Shown here one piece after another: positions 12,245 to 52,445 of a DNA stretch of 64,000 bases (position 1 is its first letter; every line of letters begins with the position of its first letter). This DNA comes from Bacteroidota bacterium (GTDB lineage Bacteria > Bacteroidota > Bacteroidia > Flavobacteriales_D > Crocinitomicaceae). The DNA lies in the NCBI GenBank assembly GCA_016192075.1, contig JACPUU010000001.1, positions 186,001 through 250,000 on the forward strand, given 5' to 3'. The position numbers were made by a program, and so were the translations under genes. A model generated the notes under the pieces. It was given only the letters and a program-made list of their open reading frames with translations. It was not told the DNA's origin and searched no databases.

Positions 12245-14503
12245 ATGCTTATGAAATCTTTTTTATCCACTCTTCTTGCAATCTTTGCTTTTGCAGCAAT
12301 ATCTTCAGCGCAGGCTCCGGAGATGTTCAATTACCAGGCGGTTGTCAGAAATACAACCGGTGCTGTGGTCCAGAACCAGGCGGTTGGTGTAAAAATTACA
12401 ATCCTTCAGGGCTCATCTTCAGGTCCTGCTGTTTTCAGTGAGACGCATTTGCCCACCACAAACAATTATGGATTGATAAACCTTCAGATTGGCACGGGAA
12501 CCAATTTTGGACCTCAGTTGAATACCATTGACTGGGCTGCTGATCTTTATTTTATGACGGTTCAGTTTGACCCTGCCGGAGGCTCTTCTTACACCATTAC
12601 GTCAACTACCCAGTTAATATCTGTACCGTATGCGTTACACGCTAAAACGGTTGAGCAAAATGATGATGCCGATGCTGATCCTACCAATGAATACAACACC
12701 GGTGGAACCTTAAGCGGCACTGATTTACAGCTTACAGATGGTGGCGGAACAGTTACCGTTGACCTGAGTTCATTGGAAGATGATGCCGATGCTGATCCAA
12801 CCAACGAGATTCAAACCATTTCAAAAGTAGGAAATATCATTACCCTTTCTAACGGAGGCGGTGCTGTTACAGATGATGTCAACGATGCAGATGCAAGCCC
12901 TACAAACGAATTAAACACAGGTGCCACACTGGTTGGTACGACATTGAATATTACCGATGCCGGTGGCACATTGGCTGTAAACCTTTCGTCACTTGGAAAC
13001 GATGCTGATGCCAGCACAACCAATGAGTTAAATACAAGTGCTGCATTGGTTGGTACAACATTGAATATTACCGACGCCGGTGGTACACTGGCTGTAAACC
13101 TTTCATCCTTGGGCAATGATGCTGATGCCAGCACAACCAATGAGTTGAATACAAGTGCTACACTGGTTGGTACGACACTGAACATTACCGATGCCGGCGG
13201 TACACTGGCTGTAAACCTTTCGTCACTTGGAAACGATGCTGATGCCAGCACAACCAATGAGCTGAATACAAGTGCCACACTGGTTGGTACTACCTTGAAT
13301 ATTACCGATGCCGGCGGAACATTGGCTGTAAACCTGTCATCGTTGAATGATGCTGACGGCAGCACAACCAATGAGTTGAACACCAGTGCTAACCTTACAG
13401 GTACTACGCTGAACATTATTGATGCCGGCGGAACATTGGCTGTTGACCTTTCAGCATTGGGTGATGATGCAGATGCGGACCCTGCCAACGAGATTCAGGC
13501 ACTTTCCCTGGTGGGTACAACACTTAGCATTTCTGGTGGTAACTCGGTTACTTTGGGTAGCGGAACCGATAGCCAGGTGCTTTCAATTGTTGGTGCAGAT
13601 TTGACCATTTCCAACGGAAATACAGTTACCCTGCCGGGTGGAACAGATAGCCAGACACTCTCAATTGTAGGACAGGATTTGACTATTGCCGGCGGAAATA
13701 CAGTTACCCTGCCAGGCGGAACAGATAGCCAGACACTCTCAATTGTAGGCCAGAATATTTCAATTGCTAATGGAAATACGATTACCATACCTGCTGATAC
13801 CGATACGGATGACCAAACACTTTCCATTGTAGGGCAAAACATTACCATTGCTGACGGAAATACCATTACAATTCCTGCTGATACGGATGATCAAACACTC
13901 TCTATTGTGGGACAAAACGTTACCATAGCTGGTGGAAATACAATCACCATTCCCGATACCGATGATCAGACACTTTCATTGGTTGGTGCAGATTTGACCA
14001 TTGCTGACGGAAACACTGTTACCCTGCCTTTACAAACCCATTTTATTGGTGAACATTTTGAAGGCGGAATTGTTGTTTGGGTAGATTCTACCGGCCAACA
14101 CGGCTTAATTGCAGCAACAGCAGATCTTGCAGGAACTTATGTATTTGAGGTAACACCAAATGACCTGGTTGTGCTTGCCACCAGTTTAACAGATGGTCAG
14201 GCTAATACAATTGCTTTAATAGCCGTTGTAGGACAATACACAGCAGCAGAAGCCTGTGATACGTATGCAGGTGGTGGTTTTACAGATTGGTATCTGCCGT
14301 CAGCGTATGAACTTGAATTGTTAGGTATGAGTAACTATGTAATGGGCTCATCAGCCCTGACACACTCAACCTATTATTGGTCTTCTACACAAGATGCTAC
14401 TTCAGCAGGTTTCAGCACTTACCGCGTTCGTAACGTTACCTTTGATATTAGTGTAACATCTGAATTAAATGCGCTGAAAGTTCGTCCAATGAGAGAATTC
14501 TAA
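12245..14503 (+). CDS. Repetitive fibre-like secreted protein with DUF1566-type C-terminus
   Basis: 752 residues; a second ATG at 12251 is an equally good start. The signal peptide ends near AISSAQ. Residues about 22-130 (PEMFNYQAVVRN onward) form the beta-sandwich head common in Bacteroidetes surface proteins. Residues about 138-415 hold eight repeats of about 36-39 residues starting DADADPTNE or DADASTTNELNT. Residues about 416-598 hold seven shorter repeats of the form LSIVGxxxTIxxGNTxTxP. The last 150 residues resemble the DUF1566/Lcl C-terminal domain (GGIVVWVD, WYLPSAYELELL, YYWSST, KVRPMREF). The build recalls a tail-fibre stalk with a carbohydrate- or ligand-binding head. No sorting domain is visible. 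Confidence 0.82.
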   Translation: MLMKSFLSTLLAIFAFAAISSAQAPEMFNYQAVVRNTTGAVVQNQAVGVKITILQGSSSGPAVFSETHLPTTNNYGLINLQIGTGTNFGPQLNTIDWAADLYFMTVQFDPAGGSSYTITSTTQLISVPYALHAKTVEQNDDADADPTNEYNTGGTLSGTDLQLTDGGGTVTVDLSSLEDDADADPTNEIQTISKVGNIITLSNGGGAVTDDVNDADASPTNELNTGATLVGTTLNITDAGGTLAVNLSSLGNDADASTTNELNTSAALVGTTLNITDAGGTLAVNLSSLGNDADASTTNELNTSATLVGTTLNITDAGGTLAVNLSSLGNDADASTTNELNTSATLVGTTLNITDAGGTLAVNLSSLNDADGSTTNELNTSANLTGTTLNIIDAGGTLAVDLSALGDDADADPANEIQALSLVGTTLSISGGNSVTLGSGTDSQVLSIVGADLTISNGNTVTLPGGTDSQTLSIVGQDLTIAGGNTVTLPGGTDSQTLSIVGQNISIANGNTITIPADTDTDDQTLSIVGQNITIADGNTITIPADTDDQTLSIVGQNVTIAGGNTITIPDTDDQTLSLVGADLTIADGNTVTLPLQTHFIGEHFEGGIVVWVDSTGQHGLIAATADLAGTYVFEVTPNDLVVLATSLTDGQANTIALIAVVGQYTAAEACDTYAGGGFTDWYLPSAYELELLGMSNYVMGSSALTHSTYYWSSTQDATSAGFSTYRVRNVTFDISVTSELNALKVRPMREF
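12661..13488 (+). repeat. In-gene tandem repeats, DADAxxTNE type
   Basis: About eight in-frame repeats of roughly 105-120 bp; the four central copies are nearly identical in DNA as well as protein, which points to recent expansion or homogenisation. A second, shorter in-frame repeat set (about 75-80 bp per unit) follows from about 13490 to 14030. Confidence 0.85.
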
Positions 14504-32844: not shown

Positions 32845-32971
32845 CGGTGGCTTCGGCTACGCTCCATCGGCCGCCATGCGCCTATGCTGACCGTGCTATG
32901 CCGTAGCGGCTGCGCGAAGGCAATGAGCTCCGGCGTAAGCATAAGGCTTACCGTCGGCGAAGCAGCCACCG
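32845..32971. repeat. GC-rich inverted-repeat region, decayed hairpin-family copy
   Basis: Ends CGGTGGCT (32845-32852) and AGCCACCG (32964-32971) are exact reverse complements. Just inside the left end is the 12-base word TCGGCTACGCTC (32853-32864) that forms the loop of the hairpin family described at 33004 and 47894. The stretch is much richer in G+C than the neighbouring genes and has no credible coding sequence. Confidence 0.6.
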
Positions 32972-33003
32972 GTTATTGCTACACTAAAATCTTTTCCGGA
33001 GAA

Positions 33004-33033
33004 CCGTTCACTGAGCGTAGCCGAAGTGAACGG
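33004..33033. repeat. REP-like hairpin with the conserved loop
   Basis: Nine-base stem CCGTTCACT (33004-33012) and AGTGAACGG (33025-33033) around the loop GAGCGTAGCCGA, the reverse complement of TCGGCTACGCTC. Same loop and different stem compared with the hairpins at 47894-48495. It lies 4 bp beyond the T tract of the rpsO terminator. Confidence 0.75.
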
Positions 33034-42641: not shown

Positions 42642-44264
42642 TTAATAATCCAATCCCAATTCTTCAATTTTTTTGCCCTCTATGAGTTCAAGTCCTTTTA
42701 TGAAAGCTTCGTTTTCATGAATGTTGTAGATTTCATAAAATTTAGCAAAGTCCCACAGGTTTGATGCAATACGGGCTTTAAGCAAAGTGTGAATTAGTTT
42801 TTTTGATGTTTCATAATCGGTTTCATCAAACGTAATTCCGTCCAGTTTTACCTGTTCACGAAATCCGGCCATGACTTCTTTTTCCACATCAAAATCAGTT
42901 TTGAATTTTTCAAAAGTAGGGTAGGCTGCGTGCAGTTTATCACGGTTATTGTCAACATAGCTGAAAGCAAACGTATTGATGGATCCTTTACGGCTAATGT
43001 CACGGTACATTTTGGTAAGCTCCAGGGTGTCAATAGGGACAAAATAATCAGGCATTACGCCGCCTCCGCCGTAAACAGTCCGGTTTAGTTTTAAGGTTTT
43101 ATATTGCAGTGAATCAGGGAATTTAATACTGTCAGCGTGCATCAGTTCACCGCTCAGGTAGCGGTTCAGATCAGCCTGAAAATAAGCATCAACACCATCG
43201 TCGTACGGTGATTGAATAAAGCGCCCTGAAGGGGTATAGTAACGGGCAATGGTAATGCGTACTTCAGATCCGTCACTGAGTTTGTATGGTCGCTGTACCA
43301 GTCCTTTTCCAAAGGTTCTACGCCCTACAATAAGTCCACGGTCCCAGTCCTGAACGGCGCCGGCAACGATTTCAGAGGCTGACGCCGAATTTTCATTGAC
43401 CAGAACCACCAGTTTGCCTTTTTCAAAAAGCCCGTCTTTTTCTTCACTGTAATACTGACCATTGCTGTCTTTGTTATCAGCAACCATGTTCTGGCGCGGT
43501 TGAGCACGTCCTTCAGAGTAAACAATAAGTTTGTCATTGGCCAGGAACATATCTACCATGTATTTTGCAATGTGCAGCAGTCCGCCGGGATTTTCCTGCA
43601 GATCCAGGATCAGGTTTTTCATACCTGCTTTTTTGAGTGCCAGCAGTGCTTCACGAAACTCATCCATGGTGGTGCGTGCAAAGTTTGTTACTTTGATATA
43701 GCCGGTTTTTTCAGTAACCATGTAATGGCTGGCTACGCTGAAAAGCGGTATTTTGTCACGGCGCACATCATAACTCACAATTTCACCTTCACCGCGGCGT
43801 TTAATACCCAGCACTACCAGTGTCCCTTTTTCACCCATCAGTTTGTCACGCACATTGGTTGTTTGTATGCCAATACCGGCAACATTTTCACCGTCAATAA
43901 CCACAATTTTGTCACCGGCTCTTACACCCACTTTTTCACACGGGCCGCCTTCAATGGTATTAACCACGGTTAAGGTGTCATCAATAATGTCAAAACGAAT
44001 ACCCACGCCCACAAAACTGCCGTCAATTTTTTCGTTCGCGCTCTGAACTTCGTCTTTGGTAATCAGGTAACTATGGGGGTCAAGCTCTTTCAGCATAGCC
44101 ACAATAGCCGCATCTGTAACAGCCGCCCCGTCAAACTCATCAACATAGTACATTTTGAGGTAGTTAAAAACCTCTTCAAATTTTCCGGTGGTTTCATTTT
44201 CCTTGAATTGTGAAAAAACCTGGATAGAGCTAAATAGTGTGATGATTAAAATAAGCCTCTTCAT
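42642..44264 (-). CDS. S41-family carboxy-terminal processing protease
   Basis: 540 residues with a signal peptide (to QVFSQ). A PDZ domain (about 85-165, GVGIRFDIIDDTLTVVN) interrupts the fold before the protease core: NLILDLQENPGGLL, NENSASASEIVAG (SASASE at 293-298, nucleophile) and GRRTFGKGLVQ (Lys320, general base). This Ser-Lys protease trims or degrades periplasmic proteins from the C-terminus. A possible promoter box (TAAATTCG read leftward, 44372-44365) lies 100 bp upstream. Confidence 0.93.
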   Translation of the reverse strand: MKRLILIITLFSSIQVFSQFKENETTGKFEEVFNYLKMYYVDEFDGAAVTDAAIVAMLKELDPHSYLITKDEVQSANEKIDGSFVGVGIRFDIIDDTLTVVNTIEGGPCEKVGVRAGDKIVVIDGENVAGIGIQTTNVRDKLMGEKGTLVVLGIKRRGEGEIVSYDVRRDKIPLFSVASHYMVTEKTGYIKVTNFARTTMDEFREALLALKKAGMKNLILDLQENPGGLLHIAKYMVDMFLANDKLIVYSEGRAQPRQNMVADNKDSNGQYYSEEKDGLFEKGKLVVLVNENSASASEIVAGAVQDWDRGLIVGRRTFGKGLVQRPYKLSDGSEVRITIARYYTPSGRFIQSPYDDGVDAYFQADLNRYLSGELMHADSIKFPDSLQYKTLKLNRTVYGGGGVMPDYFVPIDTLELTKMYRDISRKGSINTFAFSYVDNNRDKLHAAYPTFEKFKTDFDVEKEVMAGFREQVKLDGITFDETDYETSKKLIHTLLKARIASNLWDFAKFYEIYNIHENEAFIKGLELIEGKKIEELGLDY

Positions 44265-44809
44265 ATGTTTGTTGTCATTTGGTTTTATTCACCGTAACGT
44301 TGGCGCGGGTGAATTTGTTTTGTAGTCTGAGAATCAGTTTTGTATTGGTGTCTTTTTATTCCGGCGAATTTACTAAAAAAATCAGCGGTCATTTCTTATT
44401 TTTTGTTAACAGCCCCGATACTTATCCGGATCAATAACTGTGCCGCTTTCATTCATACAATGACGATTGGTTTAAGTTCAGTTAGTATGCTCAAAATCGT
44501 CTTTAACAGGCCGGTGTAAACAGTGCTCAAAGTTAGGGTAATTTGCAGGCTTTTGAAATGGCGCCGCAACACAGCGGACAGAATTCAGGGTGTATGGATT
44601 ACCGGCTGGATGAGTGGAGTATGGCAGACCCGGCCCCGGTGTTTTTGTGTATCTGCCGCCAGGCAAATACTTAAGCTTTTTAGCTGATATTAAACGGTTG
44701 AGTAGCTAGTATTACAGTGCGCTGCCGCTGTGCAGCAAGTGATTTATTTCTGCCGGTTTTCGCAAAATTAATGTATATTGGTCTGCTCAAAAAAATAACC
44801 TTCAGGGCC
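44265..44809. other. 545-bp divergent intergenic region
   Basis: Between the ctpA-like gene and the OmpA-family gene. Apart from the candidate promoter boxes at 44372-44365 (minus) and TATATTGG at 44774-44781 (plus, one base off consensus) I see no gene, RNA or repeat. A 62-codon minus-strand frame at 44478-44666 lacks coding character. Confidence 0.45.
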
Positions 44810-46999
44810 ATGTCATTGATTGTCAGAATTACTACAGCCGCTCTTGCGTTTCAATTTCTTTTTTCTGTTTCAATTGCCCAGGTAAATGTGAACGCAGGTC
44901 TTGTTAATGCTGAAAAGCAACGTGCCGCGCACAATTTTTCACAAGCACTGAAACTGTATAAAGAGGTATTGCTGACAGAACCTCAGAATGTTAAAGCCCT
45001 GGAGGGAGTCATTGATGTTTACCTGTATGATTACCAGCTTTATGATTCCGCAATTGTATACATTGATAAGCGCATGCTCATTGCCACGCCTGATACAAAT
45101 TACCTGATTTTTTACAAATATGCTGACTGTCTGCGCCTGCTTGAAAGACATAAAGAAGCCTTGAAAGAATATCATTTTTGCAGGCTTCACATGGATAAAA
45201 GAACCCGTGCCAATGTGCCGCTGATGGATGCCATGAGCACCAATATTGATTATTGCCAGAATGCCCTTAACAACAAAGAACTGATTTATGAGCCTTTTCA
45301 GGTGCACAACATGGGGTATTTTGTAAACTCCATTGAGCGTGAATACACCCCGGTCTTCATTGAGTCTGACAGTATACTGCTCTACAATGCGCGGTATAAA
45401 GATTACGATGCTGAACTCATGTCTGAAGACAATAATTACTTTGAAAACATTTATTATTTTGATTTGACTGAAAGTGTTGCGTCAACATTTAATCCTGAAA
45501 TTGATCAGAAAAATCACGTTGCAGTAGTAAGCCGTACGTATGGTGGAGATACCATTCTGGTGTGTTATAAAAATACGCTCTGGATTTCGTCGTTTGGGGC
45601 AGACCGTCTCAAAAGTCTGATAACACTTCCTGTTCCGCTTAACGGATATTATTTTCAGCCGCATGGTACTTTTTCGGGTGATAACCGCACGTTTATTTTC
45701 AGTGCCAAGGCAGAGAATGATAACCTTGATCTTTACATCAGCCGTTTTAGCAACGGGGTGTGGTCAGTTCCTGAACCGGTTAGTTACCGCGTAAACTCAG
45801 GTTTTGATGAAGACGGGCCGTACCTGAGCCATGACGGACAAACCCTTTATTTTTCGTCCCGGGGACACAACAGTTCCGGCGGGTATGATTTTTTTGTGTC
45901 ACACCTGGTAAACGGTGAATGGTCAACCCCGGTGAATATGGGATATCCAATGAATTCAGCGGCAGATGATATTTACATCAGCTGGACCTCTGATAACCGC
46001 GGCGGATTTTTCTCTTCTAACCGGATGGGTGGTTATGGAGGCATGGATATTTATTCATTCGGGCTGGTACGAAAAACCATTAACGGAACAGTGCATGATA
46101 AAGAGGGAAACATTCTGGCTTCTGTCAACATTGAAATAAAAAAACTGGAGTCGGGTGAATTGATGTACGCTACTACCGATGAGGCAGGCCGCTTTAGCTT
46201 TTTGGTAGATCCTGAAATGAAATTTAAAATTACAGGTACCAAAGAAAAATATTTTGACGGCTCGGTTCAGGTTGAAACGCTGGGTGAGCAGGGCATTTTT
46301 CCGGTTGATGTAATCCTGGAAAAAGATCCGGGACTTTCATTGTATTTGCTTATAACAGATAAAGTGACCGGTGAACCTGTTGACAGCGTTAAGGTTACGG
46401 TGGTAGATAATATGACAGGCGTGATCGATTCTGTTTTGACATCACTGACCGGTGATTACCTGCGGCCTTTGGCAGACAAAAAACTAAACGAACGCGGAAG
46501 CTATAATTTTACCATTGAGAAAAAAGGATACCTCTCCAAAACAGTTACGTTTAATGTATTGTTTGACCGTGAGGGAAAATTCAATGTGCATGAATTTCTG
46601 GATATCACGCTGGATAAAGTAGAAGTAGGACAGGATCTTTCCAAGATCGTAGAACTGAACCCCATTTATTTTGATGTTGGTAAATGGAACATTCGTGCCG
46701 ATGCTGCACTTGAACTTGATAAAATTGTTAAGGTAATGAACGATAATCCCTCCATGATTGTTGAACTGGGGTCACATACTGATTCACGCGGAAATGCCAA
46801 TTCAAACCAGGCCTTGTCTGTTAAGCGCGCAAAATCATCTGCTGATTATATTAAAGCGCGAATCACCAACCCTGAGCGAATTAAGGGAATTGGTTACGGA
46901 GAATCAAAGCTGGTGAATGAATGTAAAGACGGGGTAACCTGCCCTGATACCAAGCACCAGGAAAACCGCCGGACAGAGTTCATCATAATTTCCATGTAG
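44810..46999 (+). CDS. PorE-like OmpA-family protein (TPR, PD40, regulatory and OmpA domains)
   Basis: 729 residues from ATG 44810, which opens a proper signal peptide (MSLIVRITTAALAFQFLFSV); the frame is open 31 codons further up. Domains in order: TPR-like helices at about 25-150 (HNFSQALKLYKEVLLTEPQNVKAL), PD40/WD40-like propeller at about 170-440 (DEDGPYLSHDGQTLYFSSRG and GGFFSSNRMGGYGGMDIYSF), a carboxypeptidase-like regulatory domain at about 445-530, a linker, and an OmpA peptidoglycan-binding domain at about 615-729 (YFDVGKWNIR, then SHTDSRGNANSNQALSVKRA). This order is that of PorE (PG1058), a T9SS component of Porphyromonas gingivalis. Whether this copy serves T9SS is inference. Confidence 0.87.
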   Translation: MSLIVRITTAALAFQFLFSVSIAQVNVNAGLVNAEKQRAAHNFSQALKLYKEVLLTEPQNVKALEGVIDVYLYDYQLYDSAIVYIDKRMLIATPDTNYLIFYKYADCLRLLERHKEALKEYHFCRLHMDKRTRANVPLMDAMSTNIDYCQNALNNKELIYEPFQVHNMGYFVNSIEREYTPVFIESDSILLYNARYKDYDAELMSEDNNYFENIYYFDLTESVASTFNPEIDQKNHVAVVSRTYGGDTILVCYKNTLWISSFGADRLKSLITLPVPLNGYYFQPHGTFSGDNRTFIFSAKAENDNLDLYISRFSNGVWSVPEPVSYRVNSGFDEDGPYLSHDGQTLYFSSRGHNSSGGYDFFVSHLVNGEWSTPVNMGYPMNSAADDIYISWTSDNRGGFFSSNRMGGYGGMDIYSFGLVRKTINGTVHDKEGNILASVNIEIKKLESGELMYATTDEAGRFSFLVDPEMKFKITGTKEKYFDGSVQVETLGEQGIFPVDVILEKDPGLSLYLLITDKVTGEPVDSVKVTVVDNMTGVIDSVLTSLTGDYLRPLADKKLNERGSYNFTIEKKGYLSKTVTFNVLFDREGKFNVHEFLDITLDKVEVGQDLSKIVELNPIYFDVGKWNIRADAALELDKIVKVMNDNPSMIVELGSHTDSRGNANSNQALSVKRAKSSADYIKARITNPERIKGIGYGESKLVNECKDGVTCPDTKHQENRRTEFIIISM

Positions 47000-47035
47000 G
47001 TCTTTCTGAGCTGTAAACAATAATTTTATTAGCCT

Positions 47036-47043
47036 TAACTTTG
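47036..47043 (+). promoter_or_regulatory. -7 promoter box of menB
   Basis: TAACTTTG at 47036-47043, 15 bp before the ATG at 47058. Confidence 0.5.
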
Positions 47044-47057
47044 TTCAAAATCTGCCT

Positions 47058-47897
47058 ATGAAACCTGATTGGAAAACAGCCATCGAATTTGAAGATATTA
47101 CCTATAAAAAAAGCAACGGTGTAGCGCGTATTGCATTTAACCGCCCTGAAGTGCGCAATGCATTCAGGCCCAAAACTACGGCTGAATTGTACCGTGCGTT
47201 TTACGATGCGCAGGAAGATACGTCGATTGGTGTGGTGTTGCTTTCAGCCGAAGGGCCTTCACCCAAAGACGGAATCTGGTCGTTTTGCAGCGGTGGAGAT
47301 CAGCGTGCACGCGGGCATCAGGGATACGTGGGTGAAGATGGAATGCACCGGTTGAATATTCTGGAAGTACAGCGTCTCATTCGCTTTATGCCCAAAGTTG
47401 TGATTGCTGTGGTACCGGGCTGGGCAGTGGGCGGCGGACACAGTTTGCACGTAGTGTGTGACCTGACCCTGGCAAGCAAAGAACACGCTATTTTTAAACA
47501 AACTGATGCCGACGTAACCAGTTTTGATGGCGGCTATGGTTCAGCCTATCTGGCAAAAATGGTGGGGCAGAAAAAGGCACGTGAAATATTTTTTCTGGGT
47601 AGAAATTATTCTGCACAGGACGCGTTTGATATGGGTATGGTGAATGCCGTTATACCACATGCTGAGCTGGAAGATACCGCTTACCAATGGGCGCAGGAAA
47701 TTCTTGAAAAATCACCTACTTCTATAAAAATGCTCAAGTTTGCCATGAATCTGACAGATGATGGAATGGTAGGCCAGCAGGTATTTGCCGGTGAAGCAAC
47801 ACGCCTTGTTTACATGACTGAAGAAGCCATTGAAGGAAGAAATGCTTTTCTGGAAAAACGTAAACCGAATTTCAAAAATATTAAGTGGATACCGTAA
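47058..47897 (+). CDS. menB: 1,4-dihydroxy-2-naphthoyl-CoA synthase
   Basis: 279 residues of the crotonase fold. MenB closes the second ring of menaquinone. Diagnostic segments are NRPEVRNAFRPKTTAEL, FCSGGDQRARG, PGWAVGGGHSLHVVCDLTLAS and DADVTSFDGGYGSAYLAK, and the C-terminal NAFLEKRKPNFKNIKWIP that completes the active site of the neighbouring subunit. No other men genes are nearby. Its stop codon lies inside the left arm of a hairpin (47894-47932) that begins the repeat array. Confidence 0.96.
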   Translation: MKPDWKTAIEFEDITYKKSNGVARIAFNRPEVRNAFRPKTTAELYRAFYDAQEDTSIGVVLLSAEGPSPKDGIWSFCSGGDQRARGHQGYVGEDGMHRLNILEVQRLIRFMPKVVIAVVPGWAVGGGHSLHVVCDLTLASKEHAIFKQTDADVTSFDGGYGSAYLAKMVGQKKAREIFFLGRNYSAQDAFDMGMVNAVIPHAELEDTAYQWAQEILEKSPTSIKMLKFAMNLTDDGMVGQQVFAGEATRLVYMTEEAIEGRNAFLEKRKPNFKNIKWIP

Positions 47898-47932
47898 AAC
47901 GGTACTTCGACTACGCTCAGTATCCGTTTTAC
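47894..47932. repeat. Hairpin over the menB stop codon, REP-like family
   Basis: GTAAAACGG (47894-47902) pairs with CCGTTTTAC (47924-47932), and the inner TACT (47903-47906) with AGTA (47919-47922), around the 12-base loop TCGACTACGCTC. The menB TAA is inside the left arm. It could act as an RNA 3' end stabiliser; there is no T tract. Confidence 0.7.
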
Positions 47933-48486
47933 AGCTGATACTTGAGGTGGAATCTCTTTCCTTTGAAGAAGGATCTAAGGTGGTCGGGCGTAACCGGCAC
48001 TTCGACTCCGCTCAGTGCGCGGTTCTGCTGAATAAATAAATTTAGGTCCGGGTTAAAACCGTTAGTTTGAATGTAGTCGTGAGATTTCTTTCACGATGAG
48101 AAGGATCTAAGATGGTCGGGCGTAACCGGCACTTCGGCTCCGCTCAGTATCCGTTTTACAGCTGATACTTGAGGCGGAATCTCTTCCCTTTGAAGAAGGA
48201 TCTAAGGTGGTCGGGCGTAACCGGCACTTCGACTCCGCTCAGTGCGCGGTTCTGCTGAATAAATAAATTTAAATCCGGATTAAAACCGGTGGTTTGAATG
48301 TAGTCGTGAGATTTCTTTCACCGTGTGAAGGATTTATGGTGGTCGAGCGTAGCCGGCACTTCGACTTCGCTCAGTGCTCGGTTCTGCTGAATAAATAAAT
48401 TTAAATCCGGATTAAAACCGGTGGTTTGAATGTAGTCGTGAGATTTCTTTCACCGTGTGAAGGATTTATGGTGGTCGAGCGTAGCC
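47901..48486. repeat. Composite tandem repeat array, units B-A-B-A-A
   Basis: 586 bp made of five abutting units: 47901-47995 (95 bp, type B), 47996-48127 (132 bp, A), 48128-48222 (95 bp, B), 48223-48354 (132 bp, A) and 48355-48486 (132 bp, A). Every unit opens with GG(C/T)ACTTCG and a hairpin with a 12-base loop, and closes with GGTGGTCGGGCGTAACC, GGTGGTCGAGCGTAGCC or a close variant. The two last A units are nearly identical, pointing to recent duplication. There is no credible coding sequence. Confidence 0.9.
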
Positions 48487-48495
48487 GAGACCACC
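48470..48495. repeat. Hairpin closing the repeat array
   Basis: GGTGGTC (48470-48476) and GACCACC (48489-48495) form a perfect 7-bp stem around GAGCGTAGCCGA, the reverse complement of TCGGCTACGCTC. It is one base from the stop codon of the minus-strand gene that follows. Confidence 0.75.
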
Positions 48496-48496
48496 T

Positions 48497-50332
48497 TCAC
48501 TTAAACCGTATCACTTCAATTTCCTGCGCATTTTTCAGCAGGCGCACCCAAATCACAGAACCATCAGCCATTTTAACCAGGTTGCTGCCATCGCGGTTAA
48601 CCGGGCCATCGGGCATTTTATAATCAGCCCGTTTTTCGTTGTCGTAGAACGAGTTAAATTCTTCCAGAATGCTTTGCCTTCCTCCGCGTTCATCGAGCAA
48701 AAGATACTTGTCAGCAAAGCTATACCGGCTGGTCTGTTTGTCAAACCGCGCCTCTGAATAAATCAGCAGCAGTTCATTCCCAAGATCAACCAGTTTCGGA
48801 TTTACTTCTTCAATTTTGTCGGTTTTGGTAAGTTGTTTGACAATCATTTCTTTGCTGTCGAGTGAACATTTAACCAGGAAAAGGTCATTGTGTCCGCGGT
48901 TGGCTGAAAGCTCATTCGACTCCAGATCAGTTCTGGCGCCCTGTTCTGTTTCAATAATAACGTAAAGAAAATTGTTATACAGCAGCGGTTCACTGAAATG
49001 CGTATCAGCCACATAATTATCACCGGGCGTTCCGTCTATTTCAAAAAGTACATGGTGGTAGAAAGAGGTCGTATCCGTTGAATCTTTTGCAATGGCAATG
49101 TCTACTTTTGAGAGACAAACACCGCGTGGAATACCGTCACTCAGACTTACGAGGTACGCAAATTTAGAGTCGTGCGTGCTGGCCTGCGCAAAACAATGGC
49201 TCAGGTGATAAAGGTCTTCATTGCCTTTTTTCAGAATTCCGTTTTCAAGTGAAAACGTTTTGTATGCGCCCGATTGTAATACTTTTAAATCCTTAAATCG
49301 TTTTTCAGAATTCATGTAGATAATACCAAAGGTATCTGCAATTTCAAGGCAAACGTTATCGCGTGAATAGTAATCAAAAACCTGGTTACCAGGCAGCTTT
49401 ACATCGTTTTGTTTGAATACTACCTGTGATAATTCCACCCCGCCGTTTTGATTGTGTTTGTTGAGATACAGGCTGGGGTAAATACCGTAACTGAGCATGT
49501 TGTAATCTGTCGAGGAAAGTGAAAAAAATCCTTTTTCAGAAATGGCAATGTCGTGTATAATTTTGTCGTGATGGGCTGTTGCCGTTATTTTATTCTCAGC
49601 GTTTAGTTTGAAAATTTCAGACCCTTCAGCGTGTGCAAATACAACTACAAAACCATTGTCCGGGGTTGCCTGCACAACCGGGTTATTAAAATCGGTAGCT
49701 AAATAATAGGGTAGCTTAATGGTTGTATGATGTGTGCGGTTTACCAATTCACCTTTTTGAATCACCGTTTCATGTTGGGGTACCACAGCTTGCGTGTATT
49801 GTGCTGTTACCAGAATAGAGTCCAGGTTGTTTTGTGCTTTCAGAAATGTTTCAGCCGGATATTTGGATTTAATGGATACCAGAAAAAGGCCTGTCTGATT
49901 AATGGTATAAAGCAGTGTCAGTTTTCGCATGCCCTTATCGTATTCAACCACGGCATTGCTGAATGAGCTGCGGAGAAATTCGTTGGATGTAGACTGAAAG
50001 CGGGTGATCTCAAAATTTTTAAGTTCCTTGCTTTTTGCCAGTGACGGTTTAAAATAGGTTTCAAAGGCTTCGTAAATATCAACTTTATGACATTCCCTGA
50101 ATTCAAACAGCACATTGTCCAGTTTAAAGGAGTAGGAGTAGTAATAGGATGAACTGTCTGCCCTGAGCCTGTTCCAGGCATAGGTGCTGATACCGTCAGT
50201 TGTTACAAGTACTTTATTGCCGGCTGCAACGGCATCCGGTACATCAAATGATACAGTCGATAAAGTAACATGTGCCGACCATGCCCGCGGGGCATTTAGC
50301 AAAAGTAAAAAAATGAAAAACCGCATACTCAT
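48497..50332 (-). CDS. Secreted protein of unknown function
   Basis: 611 residues. Signal peptide MSMRFFIFLLLLNAPRAWSA, then no domain I can name. The first 170 residues have alternating strands and helices (DNVLFEFRECHKVDIYEAFE); the remainder looks like a beta-propeller-type series of strands without a clear repeat motif. Only two cysteines fall in the last half, and there is no T9SS sorting domain, so it is probably periplasmic or outer-membrane associated. Its stop codon touches the hairpin of the repeat array. A second ATG two codons in is equally plausible. Confidence 0.75.
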   Translation of the reverse strand: MSMRFFIFLLLLNAPRAWSAHVTLSTVSFDVPDAVAAGNKVLVTTDGISTYAWNRLRADSSSYYYSYSFKLDNVLFEFRECHKVDIYEAFETYFKPSLAKSKELKNFEITRFQSTSNEFLRSSFSNAVVEYDKGMRKLTLLYTINQTGLFLVSIKSKYPAETFLKAQNNLDSILVTAQYTQAVVPQHETVIQKGELVNRTHHTTIKLPYYLATDFNNPVVQATPDNGFVVVFAHAEGSEIFKLNAENKITATAHHDKIIHDIAISEKGFFSLSSTDYNMLSYGIYPSLYLNKHNQNGGVELSQVVFKQNDVKLPGNQVFDYYSRDNVCLEIADTFGIIYMNSEKRFKDLKVLQSGAYKTFSLENGILKKGNEDLYHLSHCFAQASTHDSKFAYLVSLSDGIPRGVCLSKVDIAIAKDSTDTTSFYHHVLFEIDGTPGDNYVADTHFSEPLLYNNFLYVIIETEQGARTDLESNELSANRGHNDLFLVKCSLDSKEMIVKQLTKTDKIEEVNPKLVDLGNELLLIYSEARFDKQTSRYSFADKYLLLDERGGRQSILEEFNSFYDNEKRADYKMPDGPVNRDGSNLVKMADGSVIWVRLLKNAQEIEVIRFK

Positions 50333-50405
50333 TGTACCACGAATATAGCGAATGTATCAGTACAGCAAACGTGTCTGGCAAAAGAAGAAACTGAAAGCAC
50401 AATTG

Positions 50406-50924
50406 TTACAATGAAGTCCTGATCAGGTTTACCAGGTTTTCCAGTTTATGCCGGTCAAAATCGGAGCAGTCTATCGTAATATCTGATTTTTCGTAAACAG
50501 GTAAACGTTCATCCAGTTTTTGCTGAATGTATTTTTCAAGTTGTTCCTGGCTTTGGGTATAGTTTTCAAGCAGGGGGCGCGCATGGTTTGCGTGAAACAG
50601 CCGCTGAGCCAGAATACCGGCATTAACGCGTAGAAAAACCGTTTTGCCTTTGTGCTTCATCAGTTCCAGGTTTCCGTTAAAGCAGGGAGTTCCGCCCCCG
50701 GTTGAAACCACGGCATTTTGGCCTGAATAATTTTTAAGCCAGTCAGATTCCAGGAGCCTGAAATATGCTTCACCGTTTTCTTTAAAGAGATGTGCTATTG
50801 ATTTTTTTTCGGCCGCTTCTATTTCACGATCCATATCCAGAAAGGTATACCCAAGTTTGTTGGCCAGTTTCTTTCCAATAGTTGATTTTCCGCTCCCCAT
50901 GAAGCCGATCAGGAAAATTGTCAT
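50406..50924 (-). CDS. aroK: Shikimate kinase
   Basis: 172 residues from ATG 50924; upstream codons in the open frame lie in a TACTTTTG promoter box (50935-50928). P-loop GFMGSGKST (residues 7-15), the DxD-type FLDMDREIE, the shikimate-binding ESDWLKNYSG region and STGGGTPC are conserved. It phosphorylates shikimate in chorismate synthesis. No other aro gene is in the window. Confidence 0.96.
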   Translation of the reverse strand: MTIFLIGFMGSGKSTIGKKLANKLGYTFLDMDREIEAAEKKSIAHLFKENGEAYFRLLESDWLKNYSGQNAVVSTGGGTPCFNGNLELMKHKGKTVFLRVNAGILAQRLFHANHARPLLENYTQSQEQLEKYIQQKLDERLPVYEKSDITIDCSDFDRHKLENLVNLIRTSL

Positions 50925-50927
50925 GTG

Positions 50928-50935
50928 CAAAAGTA
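50928..50935 (-). promoter_or_regulatory. -7 promoter box of aroK
   Basis: TACTTTTG read leftward at 50935-50928, three bases before the ATG, which implies a nearly leaderless transcript. Confidence 0.45.
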
Positions 50936-50996
50936 AAGACAAGACAACTGAGTTAGAGTATCTTTGATAAAATTTCCCTTTTTTTTCAGAAATATA

Positions 50997-51026
50997 TTGC
51001 AGAATAAAATAAACCATCTATATTTG
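50997..51026 (+). promoter_or_regulatory. Promoter of tRNA-Lys
   Basis: TTG at 50997-50999, a 19-nt spacer, then TATATTTG at 51019-51026, 17 bp before the mature tRNA. Confidence 0.75.
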
Positions 51027-51043
51027 CACCCGCAATCGAGCAA

Positions 51044-51116
51044 GATTCCGTAGCTCAGCTGGTAGAGCATATCCCTTTTAAGGATAGGGTCCTGGGTTCG
51101 AATCCCAGCGGGATCA
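51044..51116 (+). tRNA. tRNA-Lys(UUU)
   Basis: 73 nt. Acceptor GATTCCG pairs with CGGGATC (one T-G pair); anticodon stem TATCC and GGATA encloses CTTTTAA, so the anticodon is UUU. D arm AGCTCAGCTGGTAGAGC and T arm CCTGGGTTCGAATCCCAG are canonical. The discriminator is A and CCA is not fully encoded. Confidence 0.96.
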
Positions 51117-51117
51117 C

Positions 51118-51170
51118 AAAAGACAGAGCGAGAATGAGAGCGAAAGCTATCTTCTCGCTCTGTCTTTTTT
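51118..51170 (+). terminator. Terminator of tRNA-Lys
   Basis: A 17-bp perfect stem (51118-51134 with 51152-51168) ending in a T tract, immediately after the tRNA. Confidence 0.9.
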
Positions 51171-51258
51171 CATCATATTCATTCTGTTTTTTTATTCTGG
51201 AATCAGATCATACCCAAAAATGATGGCGTTGAAAAATTGTAACGTTCAACCTGATTTT

Positions 51259-51291
51259 TTTGATAAAAGTCCGATCAAAGTTTTAACTTTG
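51259..51291 (+). promoter_or_regulatory. Promoter of tRNA-Leu
   Basis: TTTG at 51259-51262, a 21-nt spacer, then TAACTTTG at 51284-51291, 10 bp before the tRNA. Confidence 0.65.
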
Positions 51292-51300
51292 CGGCAAAAT

Positions 51301-51383
51301 GCCCAAGTGCTGAAATTGGTAGACAGGCCATCTTGAGGGGGTGGTGTACTATGTGCGTGCTGGTTCGAGTCCAGTCTTGGGCA
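51301..51383 (+). tRNA. tRNA-Leu(GAG)
   Basis: 83 nt with a long variable arm, as in class II tRNAs. Acceptor GCCCAAG pairs with CTTGGGC; anticodon stem CCATC and GGTGG encloses TTGAGGG, giving GAG. T arm CTGGTTCGAGTCCAG is canonical. The discriminator is A and CCA is not fully encoded. The last 16 bases of the tRNA and the next two reappear 113 bp downstream. Confidence 0.94.
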
Positions 51384-51390
51384 CAGTTTC

Positions 51391-51419
51391 AAATCCTGAC
51401 TTTTTCAGTCAGGATTTTT
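51391..51419 (+). terminator. Terminator of tRNA-Leu
   Basis: An 11-bp stem (51391-51401 with 51407-51417) and a short T tract. Confidence 0.85.
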
Positions 51420-51430
51420 CATTTGGTATC

Positions 51431-51498
51431 GACTGGACGAGAAGTTTATACTGAGATCCCTTTTTTAGGGATCGAATGTAAGTCCAGTCTTGGGCACA
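51431..51498 (+). repeat. tRNA-Leu 3'-end duplicate in a structured segment
   Basis: The 18 bases 51481-51498 repeat exactly 51368-51385 (3' half of the T arm and acceptor end of tRNA-Leu). Part of the copy, GTCCAGTC (51482-51489), pairs with GACTGGAC (51431-51438), and inside lies a second stem GATCCCT (51455-51461) with AGGGATC (51467-51473). It may be a decayed tRNA gene, an old attachment site or a small RNA. Confidence 0.6.
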
Positions 51499-51540
51499 AA
51501 AAGAAAAAGCGAATCGCGTTAGCAGTTCGCTTTTTCTTTT
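51499..51540 (+). terminator. Second strong terminator after the tRNA-Leu duplicate
   Basis: A 15-bp perfect stem (51499-51513 with 51526-51540), A-rich on the left and T-rich on the right. Its presence directly after the duplicated tRNA end suggests that a transcript once ended, or still ends, here. Confidence 0.85.
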
Positions 51541-51878
51541 GCAGAAACGAGTGTGAGTATTGAGTGTAGATAAGTTAGGGATCGGGGCGTTTCTAGATCA
51601 ACTCCAAAACCTGGGGGATTGAAAAAATCACGCCTGAATTTTAGTTAGCCTGTAGAGGAAGAATTTGGTGTTTCTGACTCCGCTGAACTGTAATCTGAAG
51701 CCCTTATCTTTCTGAGCAAAGCGAAGAAACTATTGCTAAAATTTAAATGGTTTCCAGGTTTGCTCTTTATGTTTCTATTCCTGTTTGCAGGTAGACGGGT
51801 TTCAGCCTTAGAGCCCTGATAGCAAAAAAAGAATATCAAAACCTAAAGAAGCCAAAAAAGAATCAGATCTATTCGGTC
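51541..51878. other. Intergenic region without recognisable gene
   Basis: 338 bp. A 64-codon minus-strand frame (51645-51839) has no start context, composition or motif suggesting a gene. I see no RNA gene or repeat. Confidence 0.4.
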
Positions 51879-52445
51879 TTACCTTCGCGCTTTTGTCTGT
51901 TCAGATATTTTGGGATTAAACGGAACATAGTTTTTACCCATTTTCTGAGCCAGATCTCTGGCAAAATTTTCAGCTTCTTTTTTTGAATTACACACTTTCA
52001 TCAAAACTTTTTTTCGGTGATTGGCACTGAGCAGATAAACTTCATTTTTACTGGCGTCAACCTCGGTTCCAATTCCACCTGTATAAGTATTTGCTACACC
52101 CCGGGTTTTTCCCAGTTTTATGACGCACAAATCGGGCAGCATTAGTGTTGATTGCCATTTGCCGCTTCTGATGCCAAAAGCAACCGAATACTCCTTAATG
52201 TAGTTGTTCGACAATGAAATTTCAGTTCCGAATTTTGATGTAAGCGCAAAAAGAGCAGCCAGCAGAATAATGGGACCTAAAAAGAATCCGGCTCCTCCGC
52301 TTAGTAGCGCAAATGCACCCAAAACAACCATTACTCCTGCAACCAAACGTGTTGCAGGACCAAAACTAAATCCATTACTGATCCGGATATCGGCGGTTGA
52401 ATTGGTAATGTGGTCGTTGTCTACCAACTGGTCATTTGTACCCAT
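51879..52445 (-). CDS. Hypothetical membrane protein
   Basis: 188 residues from ATG 52445; ten further codons are open upstream but add nothing. Two adjacent hydrophobic helices at about 34-70 (VAGVMVVLGAFALLSGG and GPIILLAALFALTS), then a soluble C-terminal domain with a strand-rich part (EISLSNNYIKEYSVAFGI) and a helix rich in Lys and Glu (CNSKKEAENFARDLAQKMGK). The layout resembles PH-like membrane proteins, but I cannot assign a family. Confidence 0.72.
   Translation of the reverse strand: MGTNDQLVDNDHITNSTADIRISNGFSFGPATRLVAGVMVVLGAFALLSGGAGFFLGPIILLAALFALTSKFGTEISLSNNYIKEYSVAFGIRSGKWQSTLMLPDLCVIKLGKTRGVANTYTGGIGTEVDASKNEVYLLSANHRKKVLMKVCNSKKEAENFARDLAQKMGKNYVPFNPKISEQTKARR

What the first reader, a model, noticed from the sequence alone, without database searches (positions are those of the whole stretch)
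47901..48486. Exact B-A-B-A-A composite tandem array
Five abutting units of 95, 132, 95, 132 and 132 bp, each starting and ending with half of the hairpin family above. The alternation suggests growth of a two-unit (227-bp) cassette followed by duplication of one A unit. Such BIME-like arrays can change copy number and are useful strain markers; a function in 3' end stability of the convergent menB and 48497 transcripts is possible.
Basis: seen in the sequence. Interest (0 to 1): 0.55.

Follow-up and report, generated by a model that had tools for sequence, protein, structure and literature searches.

The report
Hairpin-element array tied to GIY-YIG nuclease
A five-unit DNA repeat between two genes turns out to be a pile-up of small hairpin-ended elements whose hairpin mark is found, in several bacterial groups, clustered around genes for one kind of tiny DNA-cutting enzyme, which suggests that the enzyme recognises these hairpins and helps them multiply.

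Summary
The array is real: units of 95, 132, 95, 132, 132 bp at 47901-48486, but not exact copies (B pair 90/95; A pairs 117-130/132). Each unit starts with a complete hairpin and, except the last, ends in half of one. The hairpins share a near-invariant 12-nt loop, GAGCGNAGYCGA, on varied but complementary stems. The loop occurs 49 times in this genome (reversed control 1), often in outward-facing pairs. Two syntenic relatives lack the array. The loop is absent from 23 of 23 Y1-transposase loci examined, but clusters around genes for a small single-domain GIY-YIG nuclease: 61 of 80 loci from named genomes. Within that family a C-terminal C-x-N tail predicts the loop (59/61 against 1/19; later non-duplicate loci 8/8 against 3/41). 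This genome has such a gene 176 kb away, with four loops beside it. Best reading: non-autonomous REPIN-like elements of a GIY-YIG system, tandemly amplified, perhaps after cleavage at the loop's 3' edge in single-stranded DNA. The link is positional; binding, cutting and movement are inferred, and 8 of 13 loop-rich genomes showed no such gene. The BIME comparison is right in form; a plain 227-bp cassette history is only partly supported.

The parts
47894..47932 (-). complete head hairpin of B1 (loop 47907-47918); left arm covers the stop codon 47895-47897 of the upstream gene
   Evidence: sequence; arms and loop; DNA fold z -3.57
47901..47995 (+). unit B1, 95 bp
47979..47995 (+). half hairpin at the end of B1: left arm plus decayed loop GGGCGTAACC, no right arm
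47996..48127 (+). unit A1, 132 bp, with a B-type tail; head hairpin loop 48002-48013 (-), half hairpin 48111-48127
48128..48222 (+). unit B2, 95 bp, with an A-type head; head hairpin loop 48134-48145 (-), half hairpin 48206-48222
48223..48354 (+). unit A2, 132 bp; head hairpin loop 48229-48240 (-), half hairpin 48338-48354 with undecayed GAGCGTAGCC
48355..48486 (+). unit A3, 132 bp, 130/132 identical to A2; head hairpin loop 48361-48372 (-)
48470..48495 (+). complete terminal hairpin GGTGGTC-GAGCGTAGCCGA-GACCACC, the only complete plus-strand hairpin of the array
   Evidence: DNA fold with a GC(GTA)GC mini-hairpin inside the loop
   Evidence: PF00378 5e-61
48497..50332 (-). convergent 611-aa gene without a Pfam match at E 0.01, flank; its stop codon follows the terminal hairpin by one base
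32853..33024 (.). second element of the family in the window: outward pair of loops (32853-32864 -, 33013-33024 +)

Best explanation
The array is a tandem pile-up of small non-autonomous elements. Each element is a spacer between two outward-facing hairpins that carry the loop GAGCGNAGYCGA on stems of free sequence. The autonomous form of the family is a gene for a single-domain GIY-YIG nuclease (about 100 aa, UPF0213-like) lying among the same hairpins; this genome has one such gene. Shown: the anatomy, the near-invariant loop and complementary stems, the sites without array in two relatives, and the tight positional link between the loop and nucleases with a C-x-N tail. Inferred: the nuclease recognises the hairpin folded in single-stranded DNA (with a GNA mini-hairpin inside the loop), cuts at or near the 3' edge of the loop, and the freed 3' end (left arm plus loop) primes copying on another copy, giving tandem units that lack the right arm except in the last one.
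For: Loop: 49 copies in this genome, control 1; of 17 neighbouring pairs outside the array 11 face outward. Stems: at least 5 contiguous pairs (G-T allowed) in 62.5% of 368 distinct hairpins, 10.3% with arms swapped between hairpins; N is G169 T104 A84 C11 and Y is C191 T177, as a GCGNAGC mini-hairpin with a GNA loop would allow (PMC4686876, passages); the DNA fold of the terminal hairpin contains it. Enzyme: 61 of 80 loci within 700 bp of the frame (60 of 80 counted from the matched part); C-x-N tail 59/61, other tails 1/19, p 1e-14; later non-duplicate loci 8/8 and 3/41, p 4e-7. In 61 C-x-N loci 5-11 loops per kb within 200 bp of the gene, 0-0.3 beyond 400 bp; outermost loops face outward 27:14 upstream, 38:9 downstream. 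The KK-F/W tail class of the same family has no GAG(4-5 nt)YCGA hairpin in 16 loci; a YRD tail class carries another loop, GAGGYTCTCGA, in 17/17 (C-x-N 3/74). Own gene G000:C2:410258 with loops on both sides. Sites without array: L099, L104. Tandem runs: 34, mean stem 3.2 in non-last and 6.1 in last copies; right arm lost before the last copy in 11 runs, the reverse in 1 (L203, by eye).
Against: No cutting, binding or movement was observed. Of the 13 genomes with 18 or more loops only 5 showed a C-x-N gene with loops beside it, so hairpin populations exist without a detected gene. Two GIY-YIG matches of other types also had a loop nearby (L131; L169, at a contig end). The YRD loop was found and counted on the same loci; of 6 new YRD-type tails only 2 carried it; 2 of 17 YRD and 1 of 3 NYTQ loci also hold the C-x-N loop. 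Three of four 12-nt-loop hairpins given to the fold program stay open in the loop. The loop-edge break is partly built into the scan, which required an exact loop and a lost right arm; in the window the break falls 1-2 nt inside the loop. Head hairpins of the array keep only 4-5 contiguous pairs (B1 has 13 with one bulge). The body tree is poorly resolved: 3 supported independent tail changes, in which the loop followed in 2.9 on average, too few for significance.
Confidence: 0.6

Rival explanations
1. Ordinary REP/BIME array mobilised by a RAYT (TnpA-REP) transposase.
For: Bacteroidetes have TnpA-Y1 subclass 2.6 genes flanked by atypical hairpins (PMC6006769, passages and section 13); this genome has three RAYT-like genes with similar motifs, HVH/HLH and YIHxNP.
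Against: No loop with up to 2 mismatches in the 2.3-2.4 kb around these three genes, which are flanked by other hairpins (by eye); by coordinates none of the six Y1_Tnp matches of this genome lies within 8 kb of a loop; 0 of 23 Y1_Tnp loci from loop-rich genomes hold the loop within at most 1.5 kb; three of those 12 genomes have no PF01797 match.
Confidence: 0.07
2. The hairpins are host-useful sites of a nuclease that acts on single-stranded DNA, for instance incoming DNA (as recalled for Ssn of Neisseria), and the array grew passively.
For: A single-domain GIY-YIG nuclease beside its own repeats fits a site-specific single-strand nuclease (recalled; no paper read).
Against: Explains the sites without array and the outward pairs less well than a mobile element does; not tested here.
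Confidence: 0.2
3. Transcription-end or mRNA-stability elements of two convergent genes.
For: Convergent genes with hairpins directly at both stop codons.
Against: No terminator-like site at the terminal hairpins in the pattern scan; two syntenic relatives do without the array; the nuclease link points to DNA.
Confidence: 0.06
4. Assembly artefact in unit number or order.
For: A2 and A3 are 98.5% identical; no reads available.
Against: The other units differ at many positions; comparable runs occur in other genomes.
Confidence: 0.05

Closest known systems
REPIN / RAYT systems (PMC3116915, abstract and outline)
   Same: Short palindromes in inverted pairs with a spacer, non-autonomous, spread over the genome, with a linked enzyme gene.
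   Different: The linked enzyme here is a GIY-YIG nuclease, not a tyrosine transposase; stems are free and the loop is conserved.
Atypical hairpins of Bacteroidetes TnpA-Y1 subclass 2.6 (PMC6006769, passages and section 13)
   Same: Mostly Bacteroidetes, atypical hairpins with copies elsewhere in the genome.
   Different: This loop is not at the three RAYT-like genes of this genome. Their supplementary table of motifs could not be read.
GTAG- and CGTC-tagged REPs (PMC3733652, passages)
   Same: Single elements, dimers in three orientations, and clusters.
   Different: There a terminal tetranucleotide marks the family; here the mark is the 12-nt loop.
UPF0213 GIY-YIG proteins (PDB 1zg2, 1ywl)
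   Same: The only two PDB sequence matches (E 6e-20 and 1e-14) and the two best folds (Foldseek 1.6e-6 and 7.5e-5).
   Different: The matched range ends before the C-x-N tail (profile 1-85 and 3-80 of 103).
Ssn single-strand-specific GIY-YIG endonucleases of Neisseria (recalled; not found)
   Same: As recalled: single-domain GIY-YIG enzyme whose target is repeated in its genome.
   Different: Other phylum; whether its sites are hairpins of this sort I could not check.

Membership tests
BIME/REPIN | inverted pairs of short palindromes with a spacer, in several copies | tested here: met
   11 of 17 neighbouring pairs outside the array face outward; 49 loops
BIME/REPIN | conserved stem sequence of the palindrome | tested here: not met
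   stems vary but stay complementary; the loop is conserved
BIME/REPIN | linked RAYT gene flanked by the same hairpins | tested here: not met
   0 of 23 Y1_Tnp loci; own RAYT-like genes have other hairpins
GTAG-REP | GTAG at the foot of the stem | tested here: not met
   GTAG occurs inside the loop, and its T is any base
GIY-YIG-linked hairpin family (named here) | loop GAGCGNAGYCGA on a self-complementary stem | tested here: met
   6 intact loops in the array, 4-7 contiguous pairs each
GIY-YIG-linked hairpin family (named here) | a C-x-N-tailed GIY-YIG gene with the same loops in the genome | tested here: met
   L124: tail ARCQNQTN, 4 loops within 480 bp of the gene
Ssn nucleases | sequence-specific cutting of single-stranded DNA | not testable with these tools
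   needs the protein

The most novel reading that the evidence does not exclude
A new class of bacterial mobile hairpin elements driven by GIY-YIG nucleases in place of HUH transposases, with a tail-loop code: the last residues of the nuclease (C-x-N, YRD, NYTQ) select the hairpin loop (GAGCGNAGYCGA, GAGGYTCTCGA, GAGCYTGTCGA), all built on one frame GAG-(4 or 5 nt)-YCGA, and cleavage at the loop's 3' edge drives tandem growth such as B-A-B-A-A.
Probability: 0.38. Interest if true: 0.85.

Novelty: new variant of a known kind. Interest (0 to 1): 0.7.

Why it matters
REP-like repeats are widespread in bacterial genomes and the engine usually named for them is the RAYT family (general knowledge). 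A second, unrelated enzyme linked to its own hairpins would give such orphan repeats an explanation in several phyla, and a small nuclease that reads a DNA loop, perhaps through a short tail, would be a directly testable and possibly retargetable single-strand cutter.

Tried and rejected
Rfam scan of 44000-52000 at E up to 1: two tRNAs above gathering, four sub-threshold matches, none on the array. RAYT link: rejected. Genes between widely spaced loops in L047 (an ATPase-like frame by eye) led nowhere. Literature: searches for the loop and hairpin letters gave 2, 0 and 0 papers (the two listings concern Corynebacterium and C. elegans and were not opened); GIY-YIG with REP, repeat or single-strand terms gave listings in which I saw no paper joining them; RepRanger (PMC12306157, passages) names neither GIY nor RAYT. 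The library lacks most subscription journals, so this is no proof of absence. The first script for the later loci found reading frames in only 12 of 29 and was replaced by tblastn (29 of 29). The tail rule C.N.[ST] came from 7 proteins, before the 80-locus scan; it was loosened to C.N for. L257 = L178 and L287 = L194 and seven re-finds (L286, L288-L291, L308, L312) are left out of the 8/8 and 3/41. The 3 exceptions: L262 (YRD, 1 loop), L278 (broken frame, tail unread), L283 (tail CRNKNH, a C-x-N that the rule missed). No shared loop found for the KK-F/W class.

Full report
What is there. The array at 47901-48486 consists of B1, A1, B2, A2, A3 with 95, 132, 95, 132 and 132 bp. It is tandem but not exact: B1/B2 share 90 of 95, A1/A2 119, A1/A3 117 and A2/A3 130 of 132.

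The unit. Each of the five units begins with a complete hairpin whose loop lies on the minus strand. Units 1-4 end with the left arm and most of the loop of a plus-strand hairpin, then the next unit begins; only the last has its right arm. In three of the four half hairpins the loop has decayed (GGGCGTAACC). A and B have no detectable similarity inside but similar ends. A1 has a B-type tail and B2 an A-type head, so the three older junctions are of one type and exchanges took place in the hairpin ends; a plain doubling of a B-A cassette is not enough.

The family. The 12-nt loop GAGCGNAGYCGA, followed by two purines, occurs 49 times in the 4.65-Mb genome, once in the reversed control. Outside the array 11 of 17 neighbouring pairs within 600 bp face outward, 55-458 bp apart (positions). 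Over 368 distinct hairpins with 40-nt context from the loci held then (many of them fetched because they hold the loop), stems of at least 5 contiguous pairs, G-T allowed, occur in 62.5%, against 10.3% when arms are exchanged between hairpins; all four bases occur at N, C and T about equally at Y. Allowing one or two other changes in the loop on a stem of at least 6 pairs, only 6 further hairpins were seen in loci L124 and later. Within the loop, GCGNAGC can form two pairs closed by a GNA triloop; DNA mini-hairpins with GNA loops and two G-C pairs are extraordinarily stable (PMC4686876, passages). The fold program shows it for the terminal hairpin, leaves the 12-nt loop open in the three others given, gives GAGGCTCTCGA a different inner stem and leaves GAGCCTGTCGA open. 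A free N, and Y opposite G, are what such a fold would permit: this is inference.

Sites without array. Of 30 loci of the upstream gene (1.5-kb flanks at most), three match the convergent neighbour: the window's own, L099 and L104 (47-49% identity of the neighbour). Both relatives have a gap of about 0 and 28 bp and no loop. So about 600 bp were gained here or lost there.

The enzyme. Y1 transposases were the expected partners. Three RAYT-like genes of this genome have no such loop around them and are flanked by other hairpins, and none of 23 Y1_Tnp loci from 9 of 12 loop-rich genomes holds the loop within at most 1.5 kb; the other three genomes have no such gene. A GIY-YIG gene of this genome, however, lies between loops, and so do genes in G065, G046, G079 and G023. 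Of the 39 PF01541 loci scanned, six hold loops: these five and L131, another GIY-YIG match with one loop. A seven-protein alignment showed that the five end in C-x-N-x-S/T and two relatives without loops do not. A scan of named genomes gave the best 80 of 524 confirmed relatives, itself a capped list: 61 of 80 have an exact loop within 700 bp of the frame; by tail, 59 of 61 with C-x-N and 1 of 19 others. By record title the loci with loops come from Bacteroidota and from Ignavibacteria, Acidobacteria, Cloacimonadota, Calditrichota, Spirochaetales, Geobacter and Electronema. Later loci: 29 (8/8 and 3/21) and 29; without re-finds and duplicates the sum is 8/8 and 3/41 (p 4e-7). In 61 C-x-N loci the loop density is 5-11 per kb within 200 bp of the gene and 0-0.3 beyond 400 bp, and the outermost loops tend to face outward, as in the gene-less elements. 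Among 150 genomes of the order, 7 with a C-x-N gene all have 5 or more loops, against 22 of the other 143 (tails were read for 30 of the 38 matches, and weaker relatives count as absent). Against the link: of 13 genomes with 18 or more loops only 5 showed such a gene; in G119 a GIY-YIG frame of another type at a contig end has a loop about 220 bp away.

A second loop. In the 122 loci with a tblastn match (of 152 given), C-x-N loci carry the 12-nt loop on a stem of at least 4 pairs in 68 of 74; the YRD-tail class carries GAGGYTCTCGA hairpins in 17 of 17 loci against 3 of 74 C-x-N loci, and the 12-nt loop in 2 of 17; the KK-F/W class carries no GAG(4-5 nt)YCGA hairpin in 16 loci; NYTQ has GAGCYTGTCGA in 2 of 3 and the 12-nt loop in 1; the 12 others are mixed. 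The YRD loop was found on these same loci; of 6 new YRD-type tails only 2 carried it, so this part of the code is weaker. On the body tree (117 of the 122 rows, 6 of 112 inner branches well supported) tails are interspersed; in the 3 supported independent comparisons the loop followed the tail in 2.9 on average, too few for a test.

How arrays grow. In 34 tandem runs of same-strand loops, non-last copies have 3.2 contiguous pairs on average and last copies 6.1. In 11 runs a non-last copy has lost its right arm while the last has it; one run shows the reverse (L203, by eye; sign test 0.006). In 18 of the 20 copies counted at least 4 bases left of the loop are shared with the last copy. Sharing stops 0-1 nt after the loop in all 20, but the scan selects for that. 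The window array is the same pattern with longer units. A cut at the loop's 3' edge, leaving left arm plus loop as a 3' end that primes on another copy, would give this; plain slippage would be expected to break at the stem foot. This is inference.

The protein. AlphaFold2 gives a confident GIY-YIG fold (mean pLDDT 90, the last two blocks 68 and 56); the nearest solved folds are two UPF0213 proteins, then Slx1 at E 0.003 and above. The residues invariant in 27 members include Tyr, Arg and Glu at the places expected of GIY-YIG enzymes (their role is recalled). The gene of this genome (104 aa) has an unbroken frame.

Limits. Nothing was measured. Literature searches in a partial library found nothing on the loop or the link; a GIY-YIG single-strand nuclease family with genomic repeats in Neisseria is recalled, not read, and would lower the novelty.

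Noticed in passing
window 32853-33024 (L011): Another outward loop pair with a spacer; the context 'gcgcatggcggccgatg' of its minus-strand loop recurs at L016 and L031 and in part at L034.
   Followed up: partly
L026, L027, L028 (G000 C20, C7, C18): Three RAYT-like genes, each flanked by its own, different hairpin family (by eye).
   Followed up: partly
L032 (G000:C17:277069-277565), L033 (C15 start), L018/L020/L040 (C12): Other arrays of the same loop in this genome, some of half hairpins with units of about 28 nt.
   Followed up: partly
L188, L246: The nuclease reading frame runs on to over 570 aa, with an end that looks like a type I restriction specificity subunit (by eye).
   Followed up: no
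L186, L223, L273, L295: Ends of the nuclease frames repeat short peptides, perhaps translated hairpins.
   Followed up: no
KK-F/W tail class, e.g. L261, L299: A GIY-YIG subfamily of the same kind without such hairpins nearby; its partner, if any, is unknown.
   Followed up: no
window 12881-13978: Tandem repeats with periods of 117 and 78 bp, perhaps inside a coding region.
   Followed up: no
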